A DNA stretch of 64,000 nucleotides from Melioribacteraceae bacterium. GTDB taxonomy: Bacteria; Bacteroidota; Ignavibacteria; Ignavibacteriales; Melioribacteraceae. The notes under the pieces were generated by a model, which had not been told where the DNA came from, did no database searches, and worked only from the letters and a program-made list of their open reading frames with translations. Location: contig CP129490.1 in assembly GCA_030584085.1 (NCBI GenBank), positions 2,637,511 through 2,701,510 of the forward strand. Reading direction: 5' to 3'. The translations under genes were made by a program, and so were the position numbers. Positions 46,538 to 53,908 of the stretch are shown here, one piece after another (position 1 is the first letter of the stretch; each line of letters begins with the position of its first letter).

Positions 46538-47320
46538 CTATCTGAGCAGTAACAGTTTCCTAGTTTCACTAAACTGTCCCGATGTCAATCTGTAAAAATA
46601 AACCCCGCTTGATAATCTATCTGCATTAAAATCTACTGTGTACGTTCCGGCATGCTGTTCTTGGTTTACTAATGTTTTTACTTCTCTTCCCAAAACATCA
46701 TAAATCACTAACTTAACTTTTCCGCTGTTTGGGATTGAATAACTTATTTTTGTACTTGGATTAAATGGATTCGGATAGTTTTGTGATAGTTCATATTGAA
46801 GTGGAATTCTTTCAATATCTTCTTCAATTTCAGTTACAGTTACAAATCCGGTTAGTTTTACATTATCGATTGCTGCAACATCTCCATCATTGCCTACATA
46901 TTGCCATGCTAATTTCATATTCGGGTTATTTGCATACTGTGTTATGTCAACATTTTGATATCTCCAACTCCATGGCTGTCCATCGTTATCAGCTTCCCAA
47001 ATTTGAGTCCAATTTGTTCCTCCATCTATGGAGATAAGAAGTTTTAATGTTGCAGAACTTAACCACGCAGTACTATAACCGGAATAGAATTCAATAGTTG
47101 CTGCACCCGTTGCTAATGCAAATGAGGGAGTAATTAACCATTCATCTTGATCCGCAGCTATCCATGGACAGTATGCTGAATTCACGTTTGTCGGATCGAT
47201 TGAACTAAAGTTGTGATCTGTTATGTTTCCAGCTATCCATGTATTTGTTTGATGAGTTTGATTTATTGTCCAGCTATTTGGCGGGAATTGTGCACCGTCA
47301 AATTTTTCGTCTAGCACTAC
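46538..47320 (-). repeat. Duplicated cell-surface C-terminal module, copy A
   Basis: This part of the YCF48-type gene encodes the choice-of-anchor J domain plus the sorting domain. It is closely similar, in DNA and protein, to 50704-51490 in the subtilase gene. Module boundaries are approximate. Confidence 0.7.
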
Positions 47321-49192
47321 TCTTTGCTCAGGTTCGCCGCCTCCTGCTCCACCACCGTTTGTTGTCTTAAGGATTGTTGAATAACCATAACCATCGATCT
47401 GCTCGCTGGTACCAATTGCCCAACCATAATTTTGATCAGTGAATGAAATGGAATACGTGTATGAGTATTCACCTTGCTTTACCCAACTATTGCCGCCATC
47501 GCTTGTGTAATAAATTCCATCAGCTGTACCAGCCCATCCTTTGGATTCATCACTAAAATAGATTTCGTAAATTATATTAGTTTGCCATCCTATTGGCAAT
47601 GGTCTAGCTGTTTCATTCCAGTTTGCACCTCCATCAATTGTTTTATATAATTTATATCCGGCTGCCCATCCAATATGTTCATTTATAAAGAAAATTGACT
47701 TTGTCTGTGTAATATTTGATGTATTCTCTATCCAATCAGCTCCACCGCTGGTCGTTTTGTATAATCTAAGATCTGAGGCAAGCCAACCAACATTTGGATT
47801 GACAAAAAGTAATGAACTAAAATCATCGGTTGTACCCATATCTCTGTCAATCCAATTTAAACCTCCATCGTTAGTACTCAACAAGGCATCATTAAATGAA
47901 ATATCTGTGCCTGCTGCCCAACCATTATTTTGATCTGTAAAGAAAATCGTTCTTAGTAGTCTGTTTTCATAACTGGATTGTTCAACCCAGTCAACACCAC
48001 CGTTAGTTGTTTTAAATATAAACCCATTTCCTCCGCATACCCAGCCGTGGGTACTATTGACAAAATGAATGTCATAAAAGGAAGGGGTCATGTTAAAAGG
48101 AAATGATTCTGGAGTTGTAATTGCCCATGATTCACCGTCATCTCCGGTCTTAAGAATACCTGGGCCTCCTACTGCCCAACAAGTATTTTGATTTTGAGCA
48201 TGAACTGAATTTAACCCACTCAATTGAAAGGATTGACGTCGCCAGGAATTACCGCCATCATAAGTTTGTAATAGCCCTGAACCCGTTACATATCCAGTAT
48301 TTTCATCTGTAAAATAACCGGTAGGAGTTGAAGGGGTGGAAATATTAAATGTATTTTTATTGTCAGTAATAAAATCAGGAGTATGGTCTTCCCAATCAAT
48401 TCCAGCATTTGTAGTTTTCAATACACTATAATAAGGCCCTACGGCCCATCCAATGTTGTAGTCAATAAAATTCACTGAGTTCATCGTTCCATCATAAATA
48501 ATACTTATTGTTGAACCACCATCGGTTGTTTTGAAAATTCCACCACCAATACCAGTGATCCAACTACCTGTAAAATATCCAACATTTTCATCGAGAAAGT
48601 AGATACTGGTAAGTCCATTAAATAATGAAACAGTTCTCGTCCAGTTCTCTCCCCCATCATTAGTCTTCCAAACTCCGTCGGCTACTGCCCAACCGACTTG
48701 TGAATTTATAAAAAAGATATCAGCGAAATATGTGTATGTAAATTTTGTGACCCAATTTGCACCACCGTCGGTGGTTTTAAGTAAATCACCATAATTACTT
48801 ACTGCAAACCCGAAACTAGCATCAATGAAAAATATAGAATTAATATCTCCATTAATACTTACCGAGTAATCGTTCCAAGTCAACCCACCATCATTTGTTC
48901 CATAGATTGCGCCCCCTCTCCCCCCAACCCAAAAATTTAATTGTGATACTGCCGATACAGAATAAAAATTTGTGGCAGTCGGTATTGAGCAGTTAATCCA
49001 TGTTTTCCCTTTATCGGTTGTCCTAAAGACAGACCCAGTGGCTCCCGCAACAAATCCATTATATTGATCAATGAACTTAACAGAATGAGCACCCGCACTA
49101 TTTGGGTATAATAATGATCTTTCCCATTGTGCATTAGTGCTTGTACTGACGAGCAAAAAACCAATCGCAAAAAGAAGTATTATTTGTTTCAT
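46538..49192 (-). CDS. Secreted YCF48-type beta-propeller protein with sorting domain
   Basis: The 884-aa protein has a signal peptide (to about 22) and a long propeller region (~23-640). It shows about fourteen Asp-box-like units of the form T-x-DGG-x-x-W (for example TNDGGLTW, TTDGGANW, TSDGGNSW), enough for two seven-bladed propellers. A choice-of-anchor J/cleaved-adhesin-like domain (~655-790; DEWLITPSFAL, WQYVGNDGDVAAIDNVKL) follows, then the sorting domain with ELSQNYPNPFNPSTKISYSI and a terminal LLLLR. Secretion is probably by a type IX-like route. Role unknown; perhaps adhesion or polymer binding. Confidence 0.8.
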   Translation of the reverse strand: MKQIILLFAIGFLLVSTSTNAQWERSLLYPNSAGAHSVKFIDQYNGFVAGATGSVFRTTDKGKTWINCSIPTATNFYSVSAVSQLNFWVGGRGGAIYGTNDGGLTWNDYSVSINGDINSIFFIDASFGFAVSNYGDLLKTTDGGANWVTKFTYTYFADIFFINSQVGWAVADGVWKTNDGGENWTRTVSLFNGLTSIYFLDENVGYFTGSWITGIGGGIFKTTDGGSTISIIYDGTMNSVNFIDYNIGWAVGPYYSVLKTTNAGIDWEDHTPDFITDNKNTFNISTPSTPTGYFTDENTGYVTGSGLLQTYDGGNSWRRQSFQLSGLNSVHAQNQNTCWAVGGPGILKTGDDGESWAITTPESFPFNMTPSFYDIHFVNSTHGWVCGGNGFIFKTTNGGVDWVEQSSYENRLLRTIFFTDQNNGWAAGTDISFNDALLSTNDGGLNWIDRDMGTTDDFSSLLFVNPNVGWLASDLRLYKTTSGGADWIENTSNITQTKSIFFINEHIGWAAGYKLYKTIDGGANWNETARPLPIGWQTNIIYEIYFSDESKGWAGTADGIYYTSDGGNSWVKQGEYSYTYSISFTDQNYGWAIGTSEQIDGYGYSTILKTTNGGGAGGGEPEQRVVLDEKFDGAQFPPNSWTINQTHQTNTWIAGNITDHNFSSIDPTNVNSAYCPWIAADQDEWLITPSFALATGAATIEFYSGYSTAWLSSATLKLLISIDGGTNWTQIWEADNDGQPWSWRYQNVDITQYANNPNMKLAWQYVGNDGDVAAIDNVKLTGFVTVTEIEEDIERIPLQYELSQNYPNPFNPSTKISYSIPNSGKVKLVIYDVLGREVKTLVNQEQHAGTYTVDFNADRLSSGVYFYRLTSGQFSETRKLLLLR

Positions 49193-49840: not shown

Positions 49841-50626
49841 TTAAATCCAGCCTTCAGCCAAACTTTTAGAAACCAATTCAACCGAATTTTTGCAACCCGA
49901 CTTATGTAAGATATTTTTTCGATGTGTTTCAACAGTAGCTTGTGAAATGAAAAGTTTTTCCGCGATAGTTTTTGTTTTATTTCCTTCAGATAGAAGTTTT
50001 ATAATTTCTATTTCCCTCTTAGTAAAGACGATTGGCGGACTATGATCACCAGCATTTTCATGTTTTGTTGTATCAATATCTAAATTTAGGTAAGATGGTT
50101 CATCCATTAAACCAATCAAAGAAAATTTGTAATTATTTGTTTTTGTAAGATGATTAATGTTCGTATGTATATTAAGTGACTTGATGAATTTATAATTTTC
50201 ATCCATGCTGACGACCAATGCTTGGTGATTAAATAACTCATAGCTTCCATCAGCAACTTGTAATCTAAAATTATACGATCCTTTGTATTTAGTGAATTTG
50301 TCAGCTCCGATTTCGGAGATTATAAAATTCAACGCTTTCTCTTCGGCTTTGGTCACAAATTCGATATCGTTTGGATGTGTTAGATTCAAAATATCATCTA
50401 TATTCTTAATCTCATTTGGATTAATTCCATGAATAAGTTCAAAACTTTTACTTAAGTGTGAGAGGCTCATATTATTGAAATCTATTATATAGGAATAGCA
50501 AGGGCCTGAAGAGAATATGGAACTAAGAATTTCATCAAAGTTGATTTGTGCTAATTCAGTTGATGAGCTCTGTTCATTTTGAACTTTACTCCACACTTCA
50601 TGCATAAGTTGAATTTCATCATTCAT
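49841..50626 (-). CDS. PAS-like domain LuxR-type transcriptional regulator
   Basis: The 261-aa protein has a PAS-like sensory half (~25-160; YSYIIDFNNMSLSHLSKSFELIHGINPNEI, FRLQVADGSYELFNHQALVV) and a C-terminal LuxR HTH (~195-255; FTKREIEIIKLLSEGNKTKTIAEKLFISQATVETHRKNI). There is no receiver Asp and no AHL pocket, so the signal is unknown, probably small-molecule or redox. It is divergent from no gene but is flanked by the T9SS-type secreted protein genes, so control of them is possible. Confidence 0.82.
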   Translation of the reverse strand: MNDEIQLMHEVWSKVQNEQSSSTELAQINFDEILSSIFSSGPCYSYIIDFNNMSLSHLSKSFELIHGINPNEIKNIDDILNLTHPNDIEFVTKAEEKALNFIISEIGADKFTKYKGSYNFRLQVADGSYELFNHQALVVSMDENYKFIKSLNIHTNINHLTKTNNYKFSLIGLMDEPSYLNLDIDTTKHENAGDHSPPIVFTKREIEIIKLLSEGNKTKTIAEKLFISQATVETHRKNILHKSGCKNSVELVSKSLAEGWI

Positions 50627-50665: not shown

Positions 50666-50688
50666 GAAAGGGGCACGAAGCCCCTTTC
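50666..50688 (-). terminator. Terminator after the subtilase gene
   Basis: A perfect 9-bp stem (GAAAGGGGC / GCCCCTTTC, loop ACGAA) lies 16 nt beyond the stop. The T-tract on the minus strand is short (ATTAAAT). Confidence 0.8.
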
Positions 50689-50703: not shown

Positions 50704-51490
50704 CTACCTGAGCAAAATCAGTTTCTTTGTTTCAGAAAACTGATCTGCACGTATACGATAAAAATACACACCGCTTGATAAACTTTCAGCATTAAAATCA
50801 ATAGAATATGTTCCCGCATTCTGAAATTCATTAACTAATACTTTTACAGTTCTTCCTAATACATCATAAACTACAAGATTCACTTTACTGCTCGCCGGAA
50901 TTGCATAATTAATTTTTGTACTCGGATTAAACGGATTTGGATAGTTTTGAGAAAGTGAATAATTAACCGGGATTTTTTCATCTTCTTCTTTTATGTCTGT
51001 GACAGTTACAAAGCCGGTTAATTTAATATTGTCTATTGCAACAATATCCCCATCATTACCAACATATTGCCAAGCTAATTTTATATTAGAATTATTTGCA
51101 TATTGTGTTATACTTACATTTTGGTATCTCCAGCCCCATGATTGACCGTCATTAACAGCTTCCCAAATTTTTGTCCAACTCGATCCGCCATTTGTAGAAA
51201 TGTGAAGTTTTAAAGTTGCTGCACTTAACCATGCTGTGCTGTAGCCGGAGTAAAATTCTATTGTTGCATCACCGGAAGCTAAAGCAAAACTTGGAGTGAT
51301 TAACCACTCATCTTGATCTGCTGCCATCCACTGACAAATAGCCGAGTAAGTGCTTGTAGGATCAATAGTATTAAAATTATAATCTACAACATTACCGGCA
51401 TTCCACGTATTTACCGCCTGCAGCTGAATTCTGGTCCAGCCTTGGGGTGGAAAAGTAGTTGTTTCAAATTTTTCATCAATAACAATTCGC
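50704..51490 (-). repeat. Duplicated cell-surface C-terminal module, copy B
   Basis: This part of the subtilase gene encodes the same choice-of-anchor J domain and sorting domain as 46538-47320, in the same order and orientation. Protein identity is very high in the WRYQN..ITQYANN..KLAWQYVGNDGD block. Confidence 0.7.
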
Positions 51491-53376
51491 TCTTCTGTTC
51501 CTCCACCGCCGCCTCCTGTATTAGTGACTGCTTCATAAATATCCAATCTGCCGTATCCAAAAATTGAGTTTGGTAGTGATGAGAGACCTGTTGTATTGGT
51601 GTTGTTTGTAAAAGCAGAATAAATTTGTGATGGCGTTAATGATGGATTTTTCTGAAGTAATAACGCTGCCGCTCCCGCTGCCATTGGACATGCCATGCTT
51701 GTGCCTTGCATCTTATAATAGTTTGCATCTCCACCGGCAACTCCATCATTATCAATCCAAGAAGTCGAAATGCTGGTATAAACATCAGTATCTCTAAGAG
51801 AGAGAACAACATGCCCTGGGGCAGTAATATTTGGTTTTTGGTGACCATCAACTCTCGGACCTCGGCTTGAGAAATTAGCTATTCCATTTAAAGTATTACC
51901 GGAGTAATACCATGAACTCCCATTAACATCCGTCCACATTTCTCTTGATACGTAAGCTCCAACTGCGTATGCATAATCAGCACTTGCCGGACTTCCAATT
52001 GTGTAATCTTGATCGGGATTTTGAAACGTTGTATAGGAACCCCAGTCATCATAAATATGAAAGAATTGATTGCTTGATGAGTTATTTACGACTTTCAAAT
52101 AATATGTGCCTGCTTGTCTTATGTAAAAATTATAATGCGAATATCTTGATTCTGTTCCTCTCAGACTTTCAAATGGATTTTGATCTTGAACCACATCATT
52201 CAATTTATTAAACGAAGCATCATAATATTCAAGTGATAAATTATTTCTCGTTCCCAAACCATCATACCAAACAAGATTAAACCAAAGAGTCGCGTCAGCA
52301 TCACCGGGATCGGCAAAATTAACTTGTATAAAATTAGTTGAACTGTTAGCGTTTACGGTACCGGAATAATGTCTTCCTTGTGCGGCAGAGTTTCCAGCCG
52401 AAATAAAAAATGGTACTCCTTGGTCATAAACCCAATCAGCTTTTTGTTCAATTGCTTCGCTTCCGTCATGAAAAGTATTCCATCCACCGTAACTCATGGA
52501 AAGAACATCAACATTATAAACACTAACTGCGGCATCCATTGCGGCAATTTCAGCAGCACTTGAAGCTGATGAAGATGCATCACCACCAATTTTTAAGAAT
52601 ACTAAATCAGCTCCGGGTGCGACACCGGTAAATGGACCTTGCCCGTTATTTACATGTGAATGACCAGCAGATAAAGTTCCTCTTCCCAAAACTGATCCGA
52701 CAACATGTGTGCCGTGCCCTGATGTAATGTTCTCAACATCGGGATCTATATTCGGATAATCCCAATAATCCATTGCCGTATATGAGCTAGGTAAATCGCT
52801 TCCCATATAATAAGAATCAAGTCCTGAATCCAGCACACCAACCGTAACACCGGAACCATCATAACCCAAGTTCCAAACTTGTGGTGCGCCTATGCTTTGA
52901 TTACCATTATTATTATGAGGGATAGATTCATGTTCTGCGGTATCAATCTTTTTAATAAAATCAAATGAGATTGTGTTTTCAAATTTATTAACAGGCATTG
53001 CGGCAACGATAAATCCATAAGGATGATTTTCCGAAGGAGGAGTCCATAATTCCCAATAACAATCGAGTCCTTCCGCATAAAGAATTTCCTTTTGTAATTC
53101 CGTTGGTATTGAATCAAAATACAAAACTACTTTTGTAAAACTTTGGCTTTGAGTGATTTCTCCTTTTGAAAGCTGATATTTCTTCGCACTTATCTTTTCA
53201 ATGAGTTTACCACTCAATATTTTACTTTGTTGTGCTTCGGTTAGTTGAATGTAATTCTCCTGCTGTAACAAAATTCGTTCAGAATTTGATTTTGAAAATT
53301 CAACTTGATCTATGATCTGCGCTGGGATGAGCAAGTAGAATAGAGAAAAAACTATAATGAATAGTTGTTTTTTCAT
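50704..53376 (-). CDS. Secreted subtilisin-like (S8) serine protease with sorting domain
   Basis: The product is about 890 aa from MKKQLFIIVF (ATG at 53376, with GGAGG upstream). A signal peptide is followed by a propeptide of about 51-148, then the catalytic domain with Asp183 (GVLDSG), His221 (GHGTHVVG), Asn329 (SAGN) and Ser560 (GTSMACP). An inserted domain of about 345-450 looks like a P-domain-like beta region. A choice-of-anchor J domain (~625-785) and the sorting domain end the protein. All four active-site residues are present. The adjacent lipoprotein gene is homologous to its propeptide. Confidence 0.93.
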   Translation of the reverse strand: MKKQLFIIVFSLFYLLIPAQIIDQVEFSKSNSERILLQQENYIQLTEAQQSKILSGKLIEKISAKKYQLSKGEITQSQSFTKVVLYFDSIPTELQKEILYAEGLDCYWELWTPPSENHPYGFIVAAMPVNKFENTISFDFIKKIDTAEHESIPHNNNGNQSIGAPQVWNLGYDGSGVTVGVLDSGLDSYYMGSDLPSSYTAMDYWDYPNIDPDVENITSGHGTHVVGSVLGRGTLSAGHSHVNNGQGPFTGVAPGADLVFLKIGGDASSSASSAAEIAAMDAAVSVYNVDVLSMSYGGWNTFHDGSEAIEQKADWVYDQGVPFFISAGNSAAQGRHYSGTVNANSSTNFIQVNFADPGDADATLWFNLVWYDGLGTRNNLSLEYYDASFNKLNDVVQDQNPFESLRGTESRYSHYNFYIRQAGTYYLKVVNNSSSNQFFHIYDDWGSYTTFQNPDQDYTIGSPASADYAYAVGAYVSREMWTDVNGSSWYYSGNTLNGIANFSSRGPRVDGHQKPNITAPGHVVLSLRDTDVYTSISTSWIDNDGVAGGDANYYKMQGTSMACPMAAGAAALLLQKNPSLTPSQIYSAFTNNTNTTGLSSLPNSIFGYGRLDIYEAVTNTGGGGGGTEERIVIDEKFETTTFPPQGWTRIQLQAVNTWNAGNVVDYNFNTIDPTSTYSAICQWMAADQDEWLITPSFALASGDATIEFYSGYSTAWLSAATLKLHISTNGGSSWTKIWEAVNDGQSWGWRYQNVSITQYANNSNIKLAWQYVGNDGDIVAIDNIKLTGFVTVTDIKEEDEKIPVNYSLSQNYPNPFNPSTKINYAIPASSKVNLVVYDVLGRTVKVLVNEFQNAGTYSIDFNAESLSSGVYFYRIRADQFSETKKLILLR

Positions 53377-53419
53377 TTGCGGCCTCCAATTAAGTTTAGT
53401 CAAAATACTTGACTAAATA

Positions 53420-53908
53420 TTACTTATTCAATTCGTTTAATTTCATGAGAATATCAGGATGCAATTCTATTTCTCCGGAATCAACTTTTTTAATAAACTC
53501 AAGACAGAGATTTTTTTCGAAATCCGGGACTGAAACTTCCGCTAGAACAAAACCAAGCAGATGATTTGAGGACGGTGGTGACCAAGAAGACCAATCAATT
53601 TTTGCCGAATATTTTTCCAATTCGGATTTCTGATCCGTACTAGGTTCTCTTTCAAGGTAGAAAATAACTTTTTGAATAACCTCTTCCTCTGTTAGTAAAT
53701 CATTTCTAAAGAGATACATCTTTGCGCTCATCTGTTCGATAAGTTTGCTGCTTAATATTTTATGACTGCAATCTTCGGCAAAATATAAATATTCATCTAC
53801 CGGAATTAATGTTGAATGATTTTTTTTAACCAAATCATTCTCTTGAGTTTGTTCTGAATTACATGAAAAACAAATTAATGCAATTATTAAAACGTAGATA
53901 ATTTTCAT
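53420..53908 (-). CDS. Lipoprotein homologous to the adjacent subtilase propeptide
   Basis: A 162-aa product from MKIIYVLIIA (GAGGG upstream) with a lipoprotein-like signal ending ICFSC (Cys16). Residues 49-146 align without gaps to residues 51-148 of the neighbouring subtilase, its propeptide region. By my hand count about 39 of 98 positions are identical. Shared anchors include KILS.KLIE, SAK.Y, W.PP..NH..GF and FIKK.D. There is no catalytic domain. By analogy with I9-type propeptide inhibitors it may inhibit or chaperone the protease in the periplasm, but that is inferred. It directly precedes the protease gene by 43 nt on the same strand. Confidence 0.8.
   Translation of the reverse strand: MKIIYVLIIALICFSCNSEQTQENDLVKKNHSTLIPVDEYLYFAEDCSHKILSSKLIEQMSAKMYLFRNDLLTEEEVIQKVIFYLEREPSTDQKSELEKYSAKIDWSSWSPPSSNHLLGFVLAEVSVPDFEKNLCLEFIKKVDSGEIELHPDILMKLNELNK

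What the first reader, a model, noticed from the sequence alone, without database searches (positions are those of the whole stretch)
50704..53908. Secreted subtilase paired with a stand-alone lipoprotein copy of its propeptide
The 162-aa lipoprotein encoded at 53420-53908 aligns without gaps to the propeptide of the adjacent sortable subtilase (lipoprotein residues 49-146, protease residues 51-148), with about 39 of 98 identities by hand count. It has no protease domain. Subtilisin propeptides and I9-type proteins are known tight inhibitors and folding helpers. A membrane-tethered free copy in the same operon could keep the protease inactive in the periplasm until it is exported, or help it fold. 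I know of no described protein of this exact arrangement in this group, but cannot search.
Basis: partly seen in the sequence, partly recalled or inferred. Interest (0 to 1): 0.82.

Follow-up and report, generated by a model that had tools for sequence, protein, structure and literature searches.

The report
Free-standing copy of a protease propeptide
Next to a gene for a secreted protein-cutting enzyme sits a small membrane-anchored protein that is a separate copy of the enzyme's own built-in safety cap, and it most likely keeps the enzyme harmless inside the cell that makes it.

Summary
The 162-aa product of 53420-53908 (-) is homologous to the propeptide of the adjacent subtilase (39/98 ungapped identities; BLASTP E 9e-26; the only match besides itself in the genome at E<=1). 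It is not chance and probably not a relic. The pair is intact in a second assembly of the species and in a second genus (Melioribacteraceae mag.9), where the two lipoproteins are orthologues (49% identity, branch support 100/99) distinct from the two propeptides. AlphaFold gives the propeptide's strand order; the best PDB matches are mainly subtilase propeptides, with modest scores. The pair is rare: 3 of 164 genomes of the order. Two further genomes carry a propeptide-like lipoprotein beside a papain-like protease instead. Best reading: a dedicated lipoprotein inhibitor, made from a duplicated propeptide, that guards the envelope against its own T9SS-type subtilase; organised like Tannerella potempins, working like stand-alone propeptide inhibitors (POIA1, SUB1-ProM). 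Inhibition is inferred, not shown. New variant of a known kind.

The parts
53420..53908 (-). Stand-alone propeptide-like lipoprotein gene, 162 aa (GAGGG ribosome-binding-like stretch just upstream of the ATG)
   Evidence: homology
53861..53908 (-). Lipoprotein signal peptide, residues 1-16, acceptor Cys16 (non-canonical Cys at -3)
   Evidence: sequence; pattern test; orthologue L083 has TAA|C
53453..53764 (-). Propeptide-like domain, residues 49-152; predicted strands 78-85, 101-110, 119-126, 141-144 and helices 91-100, 127-134
   Evidence: AlphaFold; PDB matches; alignment
53453..53482 (-). Tail, residues 143-152 (DSGEIELHPD), corresponding to the C-terminal end of the protease propeptide; the L083 orthologue ends at the aligned Asp
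   Evidence: placement on the active site is inferred
53377..53419 (-). 43-bp AT-rich gap between lipoprotein and protease, with a predicted 9-bp hairpin that L083 does not share
50704..53376 (-). Secreted subtilase, 890 aa
52915..53319 (-). Protease propeptide, about residues 20-154, homologous to the lipoprotein; both ends inferred
51517..52914 (-). S8 catalytic domain with Asp183, His221, Ser560 in intact motifs; limits approximate
   Evidence: Pfam; residues; motif names recalled
50716..50943 (-). T9SS C-terminal sorting domain (Por_Secre_tail), residues 812-887
   Evidence: genome encodes SprA
50666..50688 (.). 9-bp G+C-rich inverted repeat just after the protease stop; might end the transcript, but the scan lists it as terminator-like on the + strand only
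   Evidence: pattern match only; 4 found against 2.8 expected

Best explanation
The small gene arose by duplication of the propeptide part of the neighbouring subtilase gene, lost the catalytic part and gained a lipoprotein signal. It is kept as a separate protein in the envelope, where it binds the catalytic domain of its T9SS-type partner as the propeptide does: sheet against the catalytic domain, C-terminal tail toward the substrate cleft. It thereby keeps prematurely matured or back-diffusing enzyme inactive at the producing cell. Shown: homology, intact ORFs, conserved adjacency in two genera, orthology of the lipoproteins, propeptide-like predicted fold, T9SS sorting domain on the partner and SprA in the genome. 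Inferred: co-transcription, lipid anchoring, docking mode, inhibition and its purpose.
For: Homology. The pair is intact in a second assembly of the species (L082) and in a second genus (L083), 43-49 bp apart. The two lipoproteins form a branch with 100/99 support, apart from the two cognate propeptides (90/79), so a duplication before the genera split is the simplest reading. Fold: mean pLDDT 82.6 and the propeptide strand order. 4 of the 5 VIA rows with Z>=5 are subtilase proforms or prodomains: 3afg (6.6; rmsd 7.0 over 90), 4i0w (5.6; 3.4/86), 2z58 (5.2; 3.5/65) and 2z57 (5.1; 4.0/65), the last two being variants of one protein; stand-alone inhibitor POIA1 (1v5i_B) is at 4.6 (4.6/70). The L083 orthologue stops at the residue whose counterpart is aligned with the C-terminal ends of POIA1 and the BPN' prosegment, as an inhibitor ending at P1 would. 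5 of 5 genomes of the order in which I found a stand-alone copy also encode a subtilase with this propeptide. Same-genus genomes G001 and G002 show neither. Cys47 and Cys135 are conserved in the three paired lipoproteins and absent at the aligned places of the three propeptides, a possible disulfide that would let a free propeptide stay folded (inference). Precedents: potempins (PMC7296668, passages), SUB1-ProM and I9 proteins (PMC6993865, passages), cognate propeptide inhibition in trans (PMC10580911, abstract).
Against: No interaction or inhibition could be tested, and the protease model failed (pLDDT 30). The window lipoprotein is not closer to its own propeptide (36.7%) than to G058's (40.8%), so there is no sign of pairwise co-adaptation. 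It evolves faster than the partner: dN/dS 0.57-0.76 against 0.11-0.20 for the propeptide, from few substitutions. Foldseek gave no E<=0.001, an unrelated SBDS protein is third in the VIA list (Z 5.4), and all Z values are below 8, which the tool says may mean only a common arrangement. Profile comparison with class I9 propeptides was not significant. In 9 of 14 genomes of the order with this subtilase propeptide I found no stand-alone copy (several are drafts), so it seems dispensable. In genus g53 the propeptide-like lipoprotein lies beside a papain-like protease, not a subtilase.
Confidence: 0.55

Rival explanations
1. A second, membrane-tethered folding helper: it templates folding of the large subtilase in trans in the periplasm before T9SS export, and inhibition is incidental.
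For: Propeptides of mesophilic bacterial subtilases are chaperone and inhibitor at once (PMC10580911, abstract). [quoted passage not shown]
Against: The subtilase keeps a complete propeptide of its own, and in 9 of 14 genomes with such a subtilase no stand-alone copy was found.
Confidence: 0.15
2. A surface tether: the lipoprotein holds the exported subtilase at the outer membrane by occupying its propeptide site or an exosite, retaining rather than guarding it.
For: Lipid anchor by pattern in the G058, G059 and G072 copies; PrcB of dentilisin is proposed to anchor its protease (PMC8167434, passages).
Against: The protease has its own T9SS sorting domain, which in other bacteria leads to surface attachment or release (general knowledge). 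Binding at the propeptide site would block the enzyme.
Confidence: 0.1
3. An inhibitor aimed at other proteases (other subtilases of the cell, of competitors or grazers), or in genus g53 at the adjacent papain-like enzyme.
For: In G059 and G072 the propeptide-like domain is part of a 265/268-aa lipoprotein directly upstream of a papain-like protease, while the subtilases with this propeptide lie on other contigs. No preference for the own propeptide.
Against: In G000, G196 and G058 the neighbour is the subtilase whose propeptide it resembles.
Confidence: 0.1
4. A relic of a tandem duplication that has lost its protease part and has no function.
For: Fast evolution and narrow distribution.
Against: Intact ORF in 3 of 3 assemblies across two genera, 49% identity between genera with gaps only in the signal peptide and at the C-terminal end, gain of a lipoprotein signal, conserved spacing.
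Confidence: 0.07

Closest known systems
Potempins of Tannerella forsythia (lipoproteins encoded directly upstream of KLIKK proteases, including the serine protease mirolase, which I recall to be a subtilase)
   Same: Small lipoprotein gene directly upstream of a T9SS-type protease gene, stated to inhibit that protease (PMC7296668, passages, unpublished data there; PMC4404884, passages)
   Different: The six KLIKK-upstream lipoproteins share no significant sequence similarity with each other (PMC4404884). Nothing in the passages I saw describes one as a copy of a propeptide. Here the homology to the partner's own propeptide is direct.
Stand-alone subtilisin propeptide-like inhibitors (I9: Pleurotus POIA1, yeast peptidase B inhibitor, Arabidopsis SPI-1; also TgMIC5 and Plasmodium SUB1-ProM)
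   Same: Free-standing propeptide fold without protease domain; the SUB1-ProM gene also lies adjacent to subtilase genes (PMC6993865, passages)
   Different: Those are eukaryotic and, as far as I recall, not lipoproteins; the three I9 examples lack significant sequence similarity to propeptides (same passages). No Pfam I9 match here.
Spi of Streptococcus pyogenes (SpeB operon) and the staphostatin-like Bfi/Bti proteins of Bacteroides
   Same: Small inhibitor gene coupled to a protease gene; BtiA predicted to be a lipoprotein (PMC3462683, passages)
   Different: The proteases are papain-like cysteine enzymes; Spi is thought to act in the cytoplasm. That Spi resembles the SpeB propeptide is recalled, not from a call.
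PrcB of the Treponema dentilisin complex (prcB-prcA-prtP)
   Same: Small lipoprotein encoded ahead of a subtilase in one operon, interacting with it (PMC8167434, passages)
   Different: Required for PrtP and part of the mature complex; the passages I saw do not describe it as an inhibitor or propeptide copy. Not compared by sequence.

Membership tests
Propeptide family of Ignavibacteria T9SS subtilases (home family) | Significant sequence homology to these propeptides over the whole domain | tested here: met
   with the A1 profile, which contains it, 174 bits, E 3.7e-51
Stand-alone subtilisin propeptide-like inhibitors (I9 type) | Separate gene product, no protease domain | tested here: met
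Stand-alone subtilisin propeptide-like inhibitors (I9 type) | beta-alpha-beta-beta-alpha-beta order of the propeptide fold | tested here: met
   Predicted only. PDB matches modest: propeptide rows Z 4.5-6.6, no Foldseek E<=0.001
Stand-alone subtilisin propeptide-like inhibitors (I9 type) | Match to Pfam Inhibitor_I9 (PF05922) | tested here: not met
   not among hits up to E 1; no match in G000 or G058; hhalign E 0.3. It is therefore not filed as a member of Pfam I9.
Stand-alone subtilisin propeptide-like inhibitors (I9 type) | C-terminal tail fills the substrate cleft | tested here: inconclusive
   Orthologue L083 ends where POIA1 and the BPN' prosegment end in the structural alignment; the window copy runs ten residues further; no complex model
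Stand-alone subtilisin propeptide-like inhibitors (I9 type) | Tight inhibition of a subtilase | not testable with these tools
   needs an assay
Potempin-like guard lipoproteins | Small lipoprotein gene directly upstream, same strand, of a T9SS-signal protease | tested here: met
   lipobox pattern strict only in the G058, G059 and G072 copies, relaxed in the window copy
Potempin-like guard lipoproteins | Sequence or fold relation to a potempin | not tested
   no potempin sequence or structure was compared on purpose
Potempin-like guard lipoproteins | Inhibits the co-encoded protease | not testable with these tools
   needs an assay

The most novel reading that the evidence does not exclude
T9SS bacteria of this class carry exchangeable 'cargo plus guard lipoprotein' cassettes in which guards are built from parts that include propeptide domains. 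One guard is a free copy of the partner's propeptide (window, G058). Another (G059, G072) fuses the propeptide-like domain to a second lipoprotein domain that elsewhere stands alone upstream of large secreted-looking proteins, making a two-headed guard beside a papain-like protease. The place next to the M24 peptidase gene would be a slot where such cassettes are swapped.
Probability: 0.2. Interest if true: 0.65.

Novelty: new variant of a known kind. Interest (0 to 1): 0.5.

Why it matters
How a cell that moves potent proteases through its periplasm to the T9SS avoids digesting itself is, to my knowledge, little studied outside Tannerella. Here the guard's origin can be read from sequence: it is a duplicated propeptide with a lipoprotein signal. 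The system is small (one domain, one protease) and directly testable, and it would give a bacterial counterpart to POIA1 and SUB1-ProM. It also warns annotators that propeptide-only genes can be real proteins rather than broken proteases.

Tried and rejected
Chance alignment: rejected. Relic: unlikely. Folding of propeptide plus catalytic domain to see docking: failed, pLDDT 30 with 3 sequences, not used. Profile link to class I9 propeptides (16 loci of the 20 fetched): not significant, E 0.3 over 14 columns, although that stretch is in register; an earlier motif-based extraction from the same loci found a frame in only 3 of 20 and was dropped. Co-adaptation between cognate partners: no signal. 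One origin of all four stand-alone copies compared (window, L083, G059, G072): not rejected (AU p 0.291) and not shown; 10 of 17 inner branches are open and several end branches are long. Conserved hairpin between the genes: not in L083. NtrC-type regulator in the window: none found. Plasmid search with the lipoprotein: no match.

Dropped before counting stand-alone copies: G130:C445 (257 aa) and G059:C86 (190 aa), protease frames that run to the end of the held contig; G143:C80 (118 aa), part of a frameshifted protease; G075:C6 (406 aa, E 2.5e-4), a gene that I judged by eye to be metallophosphoesterase-like. G132 (808-aa frame) is counted as a subtilase from frame length and match alone; my scripts did not print its sequence. 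In one search the weak G050 match (E 0.008, 719-aa frame) was not followed; at G068 (E 0.009, 194-aa frame) I saw only unrelated genes. In one search, 53 of 56 I9 matches lie in open frames of 295 aa or more; the other three (165, 197, 225 aa) were not inspected. In some searches only some of the first-look candidates of each genome were scored (for example 22 or 9 of 64 in G000), so stand-alone copies may have been missed.
Full report
OBSERVATION. The window (positions 2637511-2701510 of a 3.74-Mb single-contig genome) holds, on the minus strand, a 162-aa gene (53420-53908) followed after 43 bp by an 890-aa subtilase (50704-53376). The subtilase has a signal-like N-terminus, a propeptide, an S8 domain, a MAM match below Pfam's cut-off and a T9SS C-terminal sorting domain. 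The genome encodes SprA and has many matches to the sorting tail. BLASTP E is 9e-26. In the whole genome the lipoprotein matches only itself and this propeptide at E<=1, the latter at 1.1e-21. Mature parts score 211 against at most 58 in 2000 shuffles.

RELATIVES. One search (58 genomes, lipoprotein as query, E<=0.001) found 3 genomes with a match: the window's own, and G004 and G009, in which only protease frames matched. With the propeptide as query, 15 of 196 genomes matched at E<=0.01. With a 15-row profile, 15 of 164 genomes of the order, 15 of 391 sampled from the class and 4 of 395 sampled from the phylum matched at E<=0.001 (the sets overlap, and only part of each genome's first-look candidates was scored). 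In the order, after setting aside one spurious match (G075), 14 of 164 genomes have a subtilase with this propeptide (G132 judged by frame length only; G143 frameshifted). Five of these also have a stand-alone copy: G000, G196 and G058 beside the subtilase, and G059 and G072 beside a papain-like protease. The class and phylum samples added no further stand-alone copy; the new matches there lie in frames of 702 aa or more. Named records are L082 (Ignavibacteriales SURF_28, taken to be G196 from matching coordinates) and L083 (Melioribacteraceae mag.9, taken to be G058 from contig length and position). Gaps between the two genes are 43, 43 and 49 bp.

ORTHOLOGY. The window and L083 lipoproteins are 49% identical and form a branch with support 100/99, while the two subtilase propeptides form another (90/79); the two branches are sisters with 77/80. 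The duplication is thus best placed before the split of the two genera, on moderate support. The stem of the lipoprotein branch is long (1.2). Within the species the lipoprotein changes faster than its partner: dN/dS 0.57-0.76, against 0.11-0.20 for the propeptide and 0.10-0.12 for the catalytic part. Amino-acid changes are 12/162 against 4/152 (p 0.07) and 7/488 (p 0.0004). Eight of the 12 changes fall in residues 117-138 (7 of 20000 random draws as clustered; the window length was chosen after seeing the data).

SYNTENY. The same-genus genomes G001 and G002 show neither gene (G001 is a draft of 590 contigs). There the M24 peptidase gene, which lies one gene away from the pair in the window, sits next to an NtrC-type regulator. 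In G058 the pair lies near a regulator 51% identical to that one, with M24 on another contig; the window holds no such regulator. This suggests that the pair is gained, lost or moved as a unit. It is not proof.

STRUCTURE. AlphaFold on six sequences gives mean pLDDT 82.6 and pTM 0.72 (five models 53-83); the core 78-144 is strand-helix-strand-strand-helix-strand. Foldseek's two best hits are CspB (4i0w, 92-residue chain, E 0.021) and the cucumisin propeptide (4yn3_B, E 0.033); none reaches 0.001. VIA ranks Tk-SP with ProN first (Z 6.6, rmsd 7.0 over 90), then CspB (5.6, 3.4/86), an unrelated SBDS protein (5.4, 2.4/65) and two variants of the Tk-subtilisin propeptide (5.2, 3.5/65; 5.1, 4.0/65); pro-subtilisin E (4.7, 2.4/63), POIA1 (4.6, 4.6/70) and the BPN' prosegment (4.5, 4.3/67) follow among unrelated folds. 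These scores fit the propeptide fold but are not strong. In those alignments the last aligned pair joins the C-terminal ends of POIA1 (76) and the BPN' prosegment (77) to residue 152. The L083 orthologue ends at the aligned Asp, whereas the window copy continues for ten residues, predicted helical. Asp143 and Glu146 are invariant in the six aligned sequences. I infer that they correspond to the capping acids of BPN' (recalled), a feature that SUB1-ProM also keeps in part (PMC6993865, passages).

A THIRD GENUS. In G059 and G072 the propeptide-like domain sits in a 265/268-aa lipoprotein directly upstream of a papain-like protease and beside the M24 gene. Pfam gives the G059 protease a C1 domain, a lectin-like domain and a T9SS sorting domain; the G072 one was judged by eye from its translation. 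The second domain of these lipoproteins also occurs alone in small lipoproteins in four other genomes (6 of 160 matched in all; the four at E 1.9e-7 to 7.9e-4). In three of these it lies directly upstream of a large gene, cut by the end of the locus so that a sorting tail could not be seen, with a below-cut-off sortilin match in two. This weakens a strict one-to-one pairing and opens the novel case.

MECHANISM AND LITERATURE. Potempins set the precedent for a lipoprotein inhibitor in front of a T9SS protease (PMC7296668 and PMC4404884, passages; the former cites the inhibition as unpublished). I9 proteins and SUB1-ProM set it for a free propeptide as inhibitor (PMC6993865, passages). Spi and staphostatin-like proteins set it for protease-coupled inhibitors (PMC3462683, passages), and PrcB for a lipoprotein partner of a subtilase (PMC8167434, passages). 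KP-43 type putative T9SS subtilases of Bergeyella have a different, non-I9 propeptide (PMC11982257, passages). A cognate propeptide can inhibit with high selectivity (PMC10580911, abstract). None of my seven literature listings (only the top 10 to 20 papers of each were shown) showed a bacterial lipoprotein derived from a subtilase propeptide; subscription papers are mostly not held, so this is weak evidence of novelty. I9-type propeptides occur in 49 of 197 genomes sampled from the class (56 matches), and 53 of 56 lie in frames of 295 aa or more, so stand-alone I9 copies are at most few there.

VERDICT. A real, conserved, rare gene pair. The best-supported reading is a propeptide-derived lipoprotein guard of a T9SS-type subtilase (0.55), with a folding helper, tether, wider-target inhibitor or relic as rivals. 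Inhibition remains to be measured.

Noticed in passing
L046:6508-7302, L047:6729-7520; also L121, L122, L123, L124: A C-terminal lipoprotein domain (GT...W pattern; no match over Pfam's cut-off in the four proteins tested) is fused to a propeptide-like domain in G059/G072 and stands alone in four other genomes, in three of them directly upstream of a large secreted-looking gene, and in G077 and G009 beside M24.
   Followed up: partly
window 46538-49192 and 50704-51582: The neighbouring T9SS protein shares a C-terminal module (protease residues 599-890) that is 68% identical with the subtilase's, above the other sorting-tail matches in the genome (43-57% among the next best): recent duplication or gene conversion.
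   Followed up: no
window 49841-50626: LuxR-type regulator with a PAS match just below cut-off lies downstream of the protease on the same strand; possible regulator of the pair.
   Followed up: no
window 53495-53560 (lipoprotein residues 117-138): 8 of 12 amino-acid differences between two assemblies of the species cluster here; possible local rapid evolution.
   Followed up: partly
L071 (G143:C80): Subtilase of the same propeptide family split by a frameshift in the propeptide; assembly error or pseudogene.
   Followed up: no
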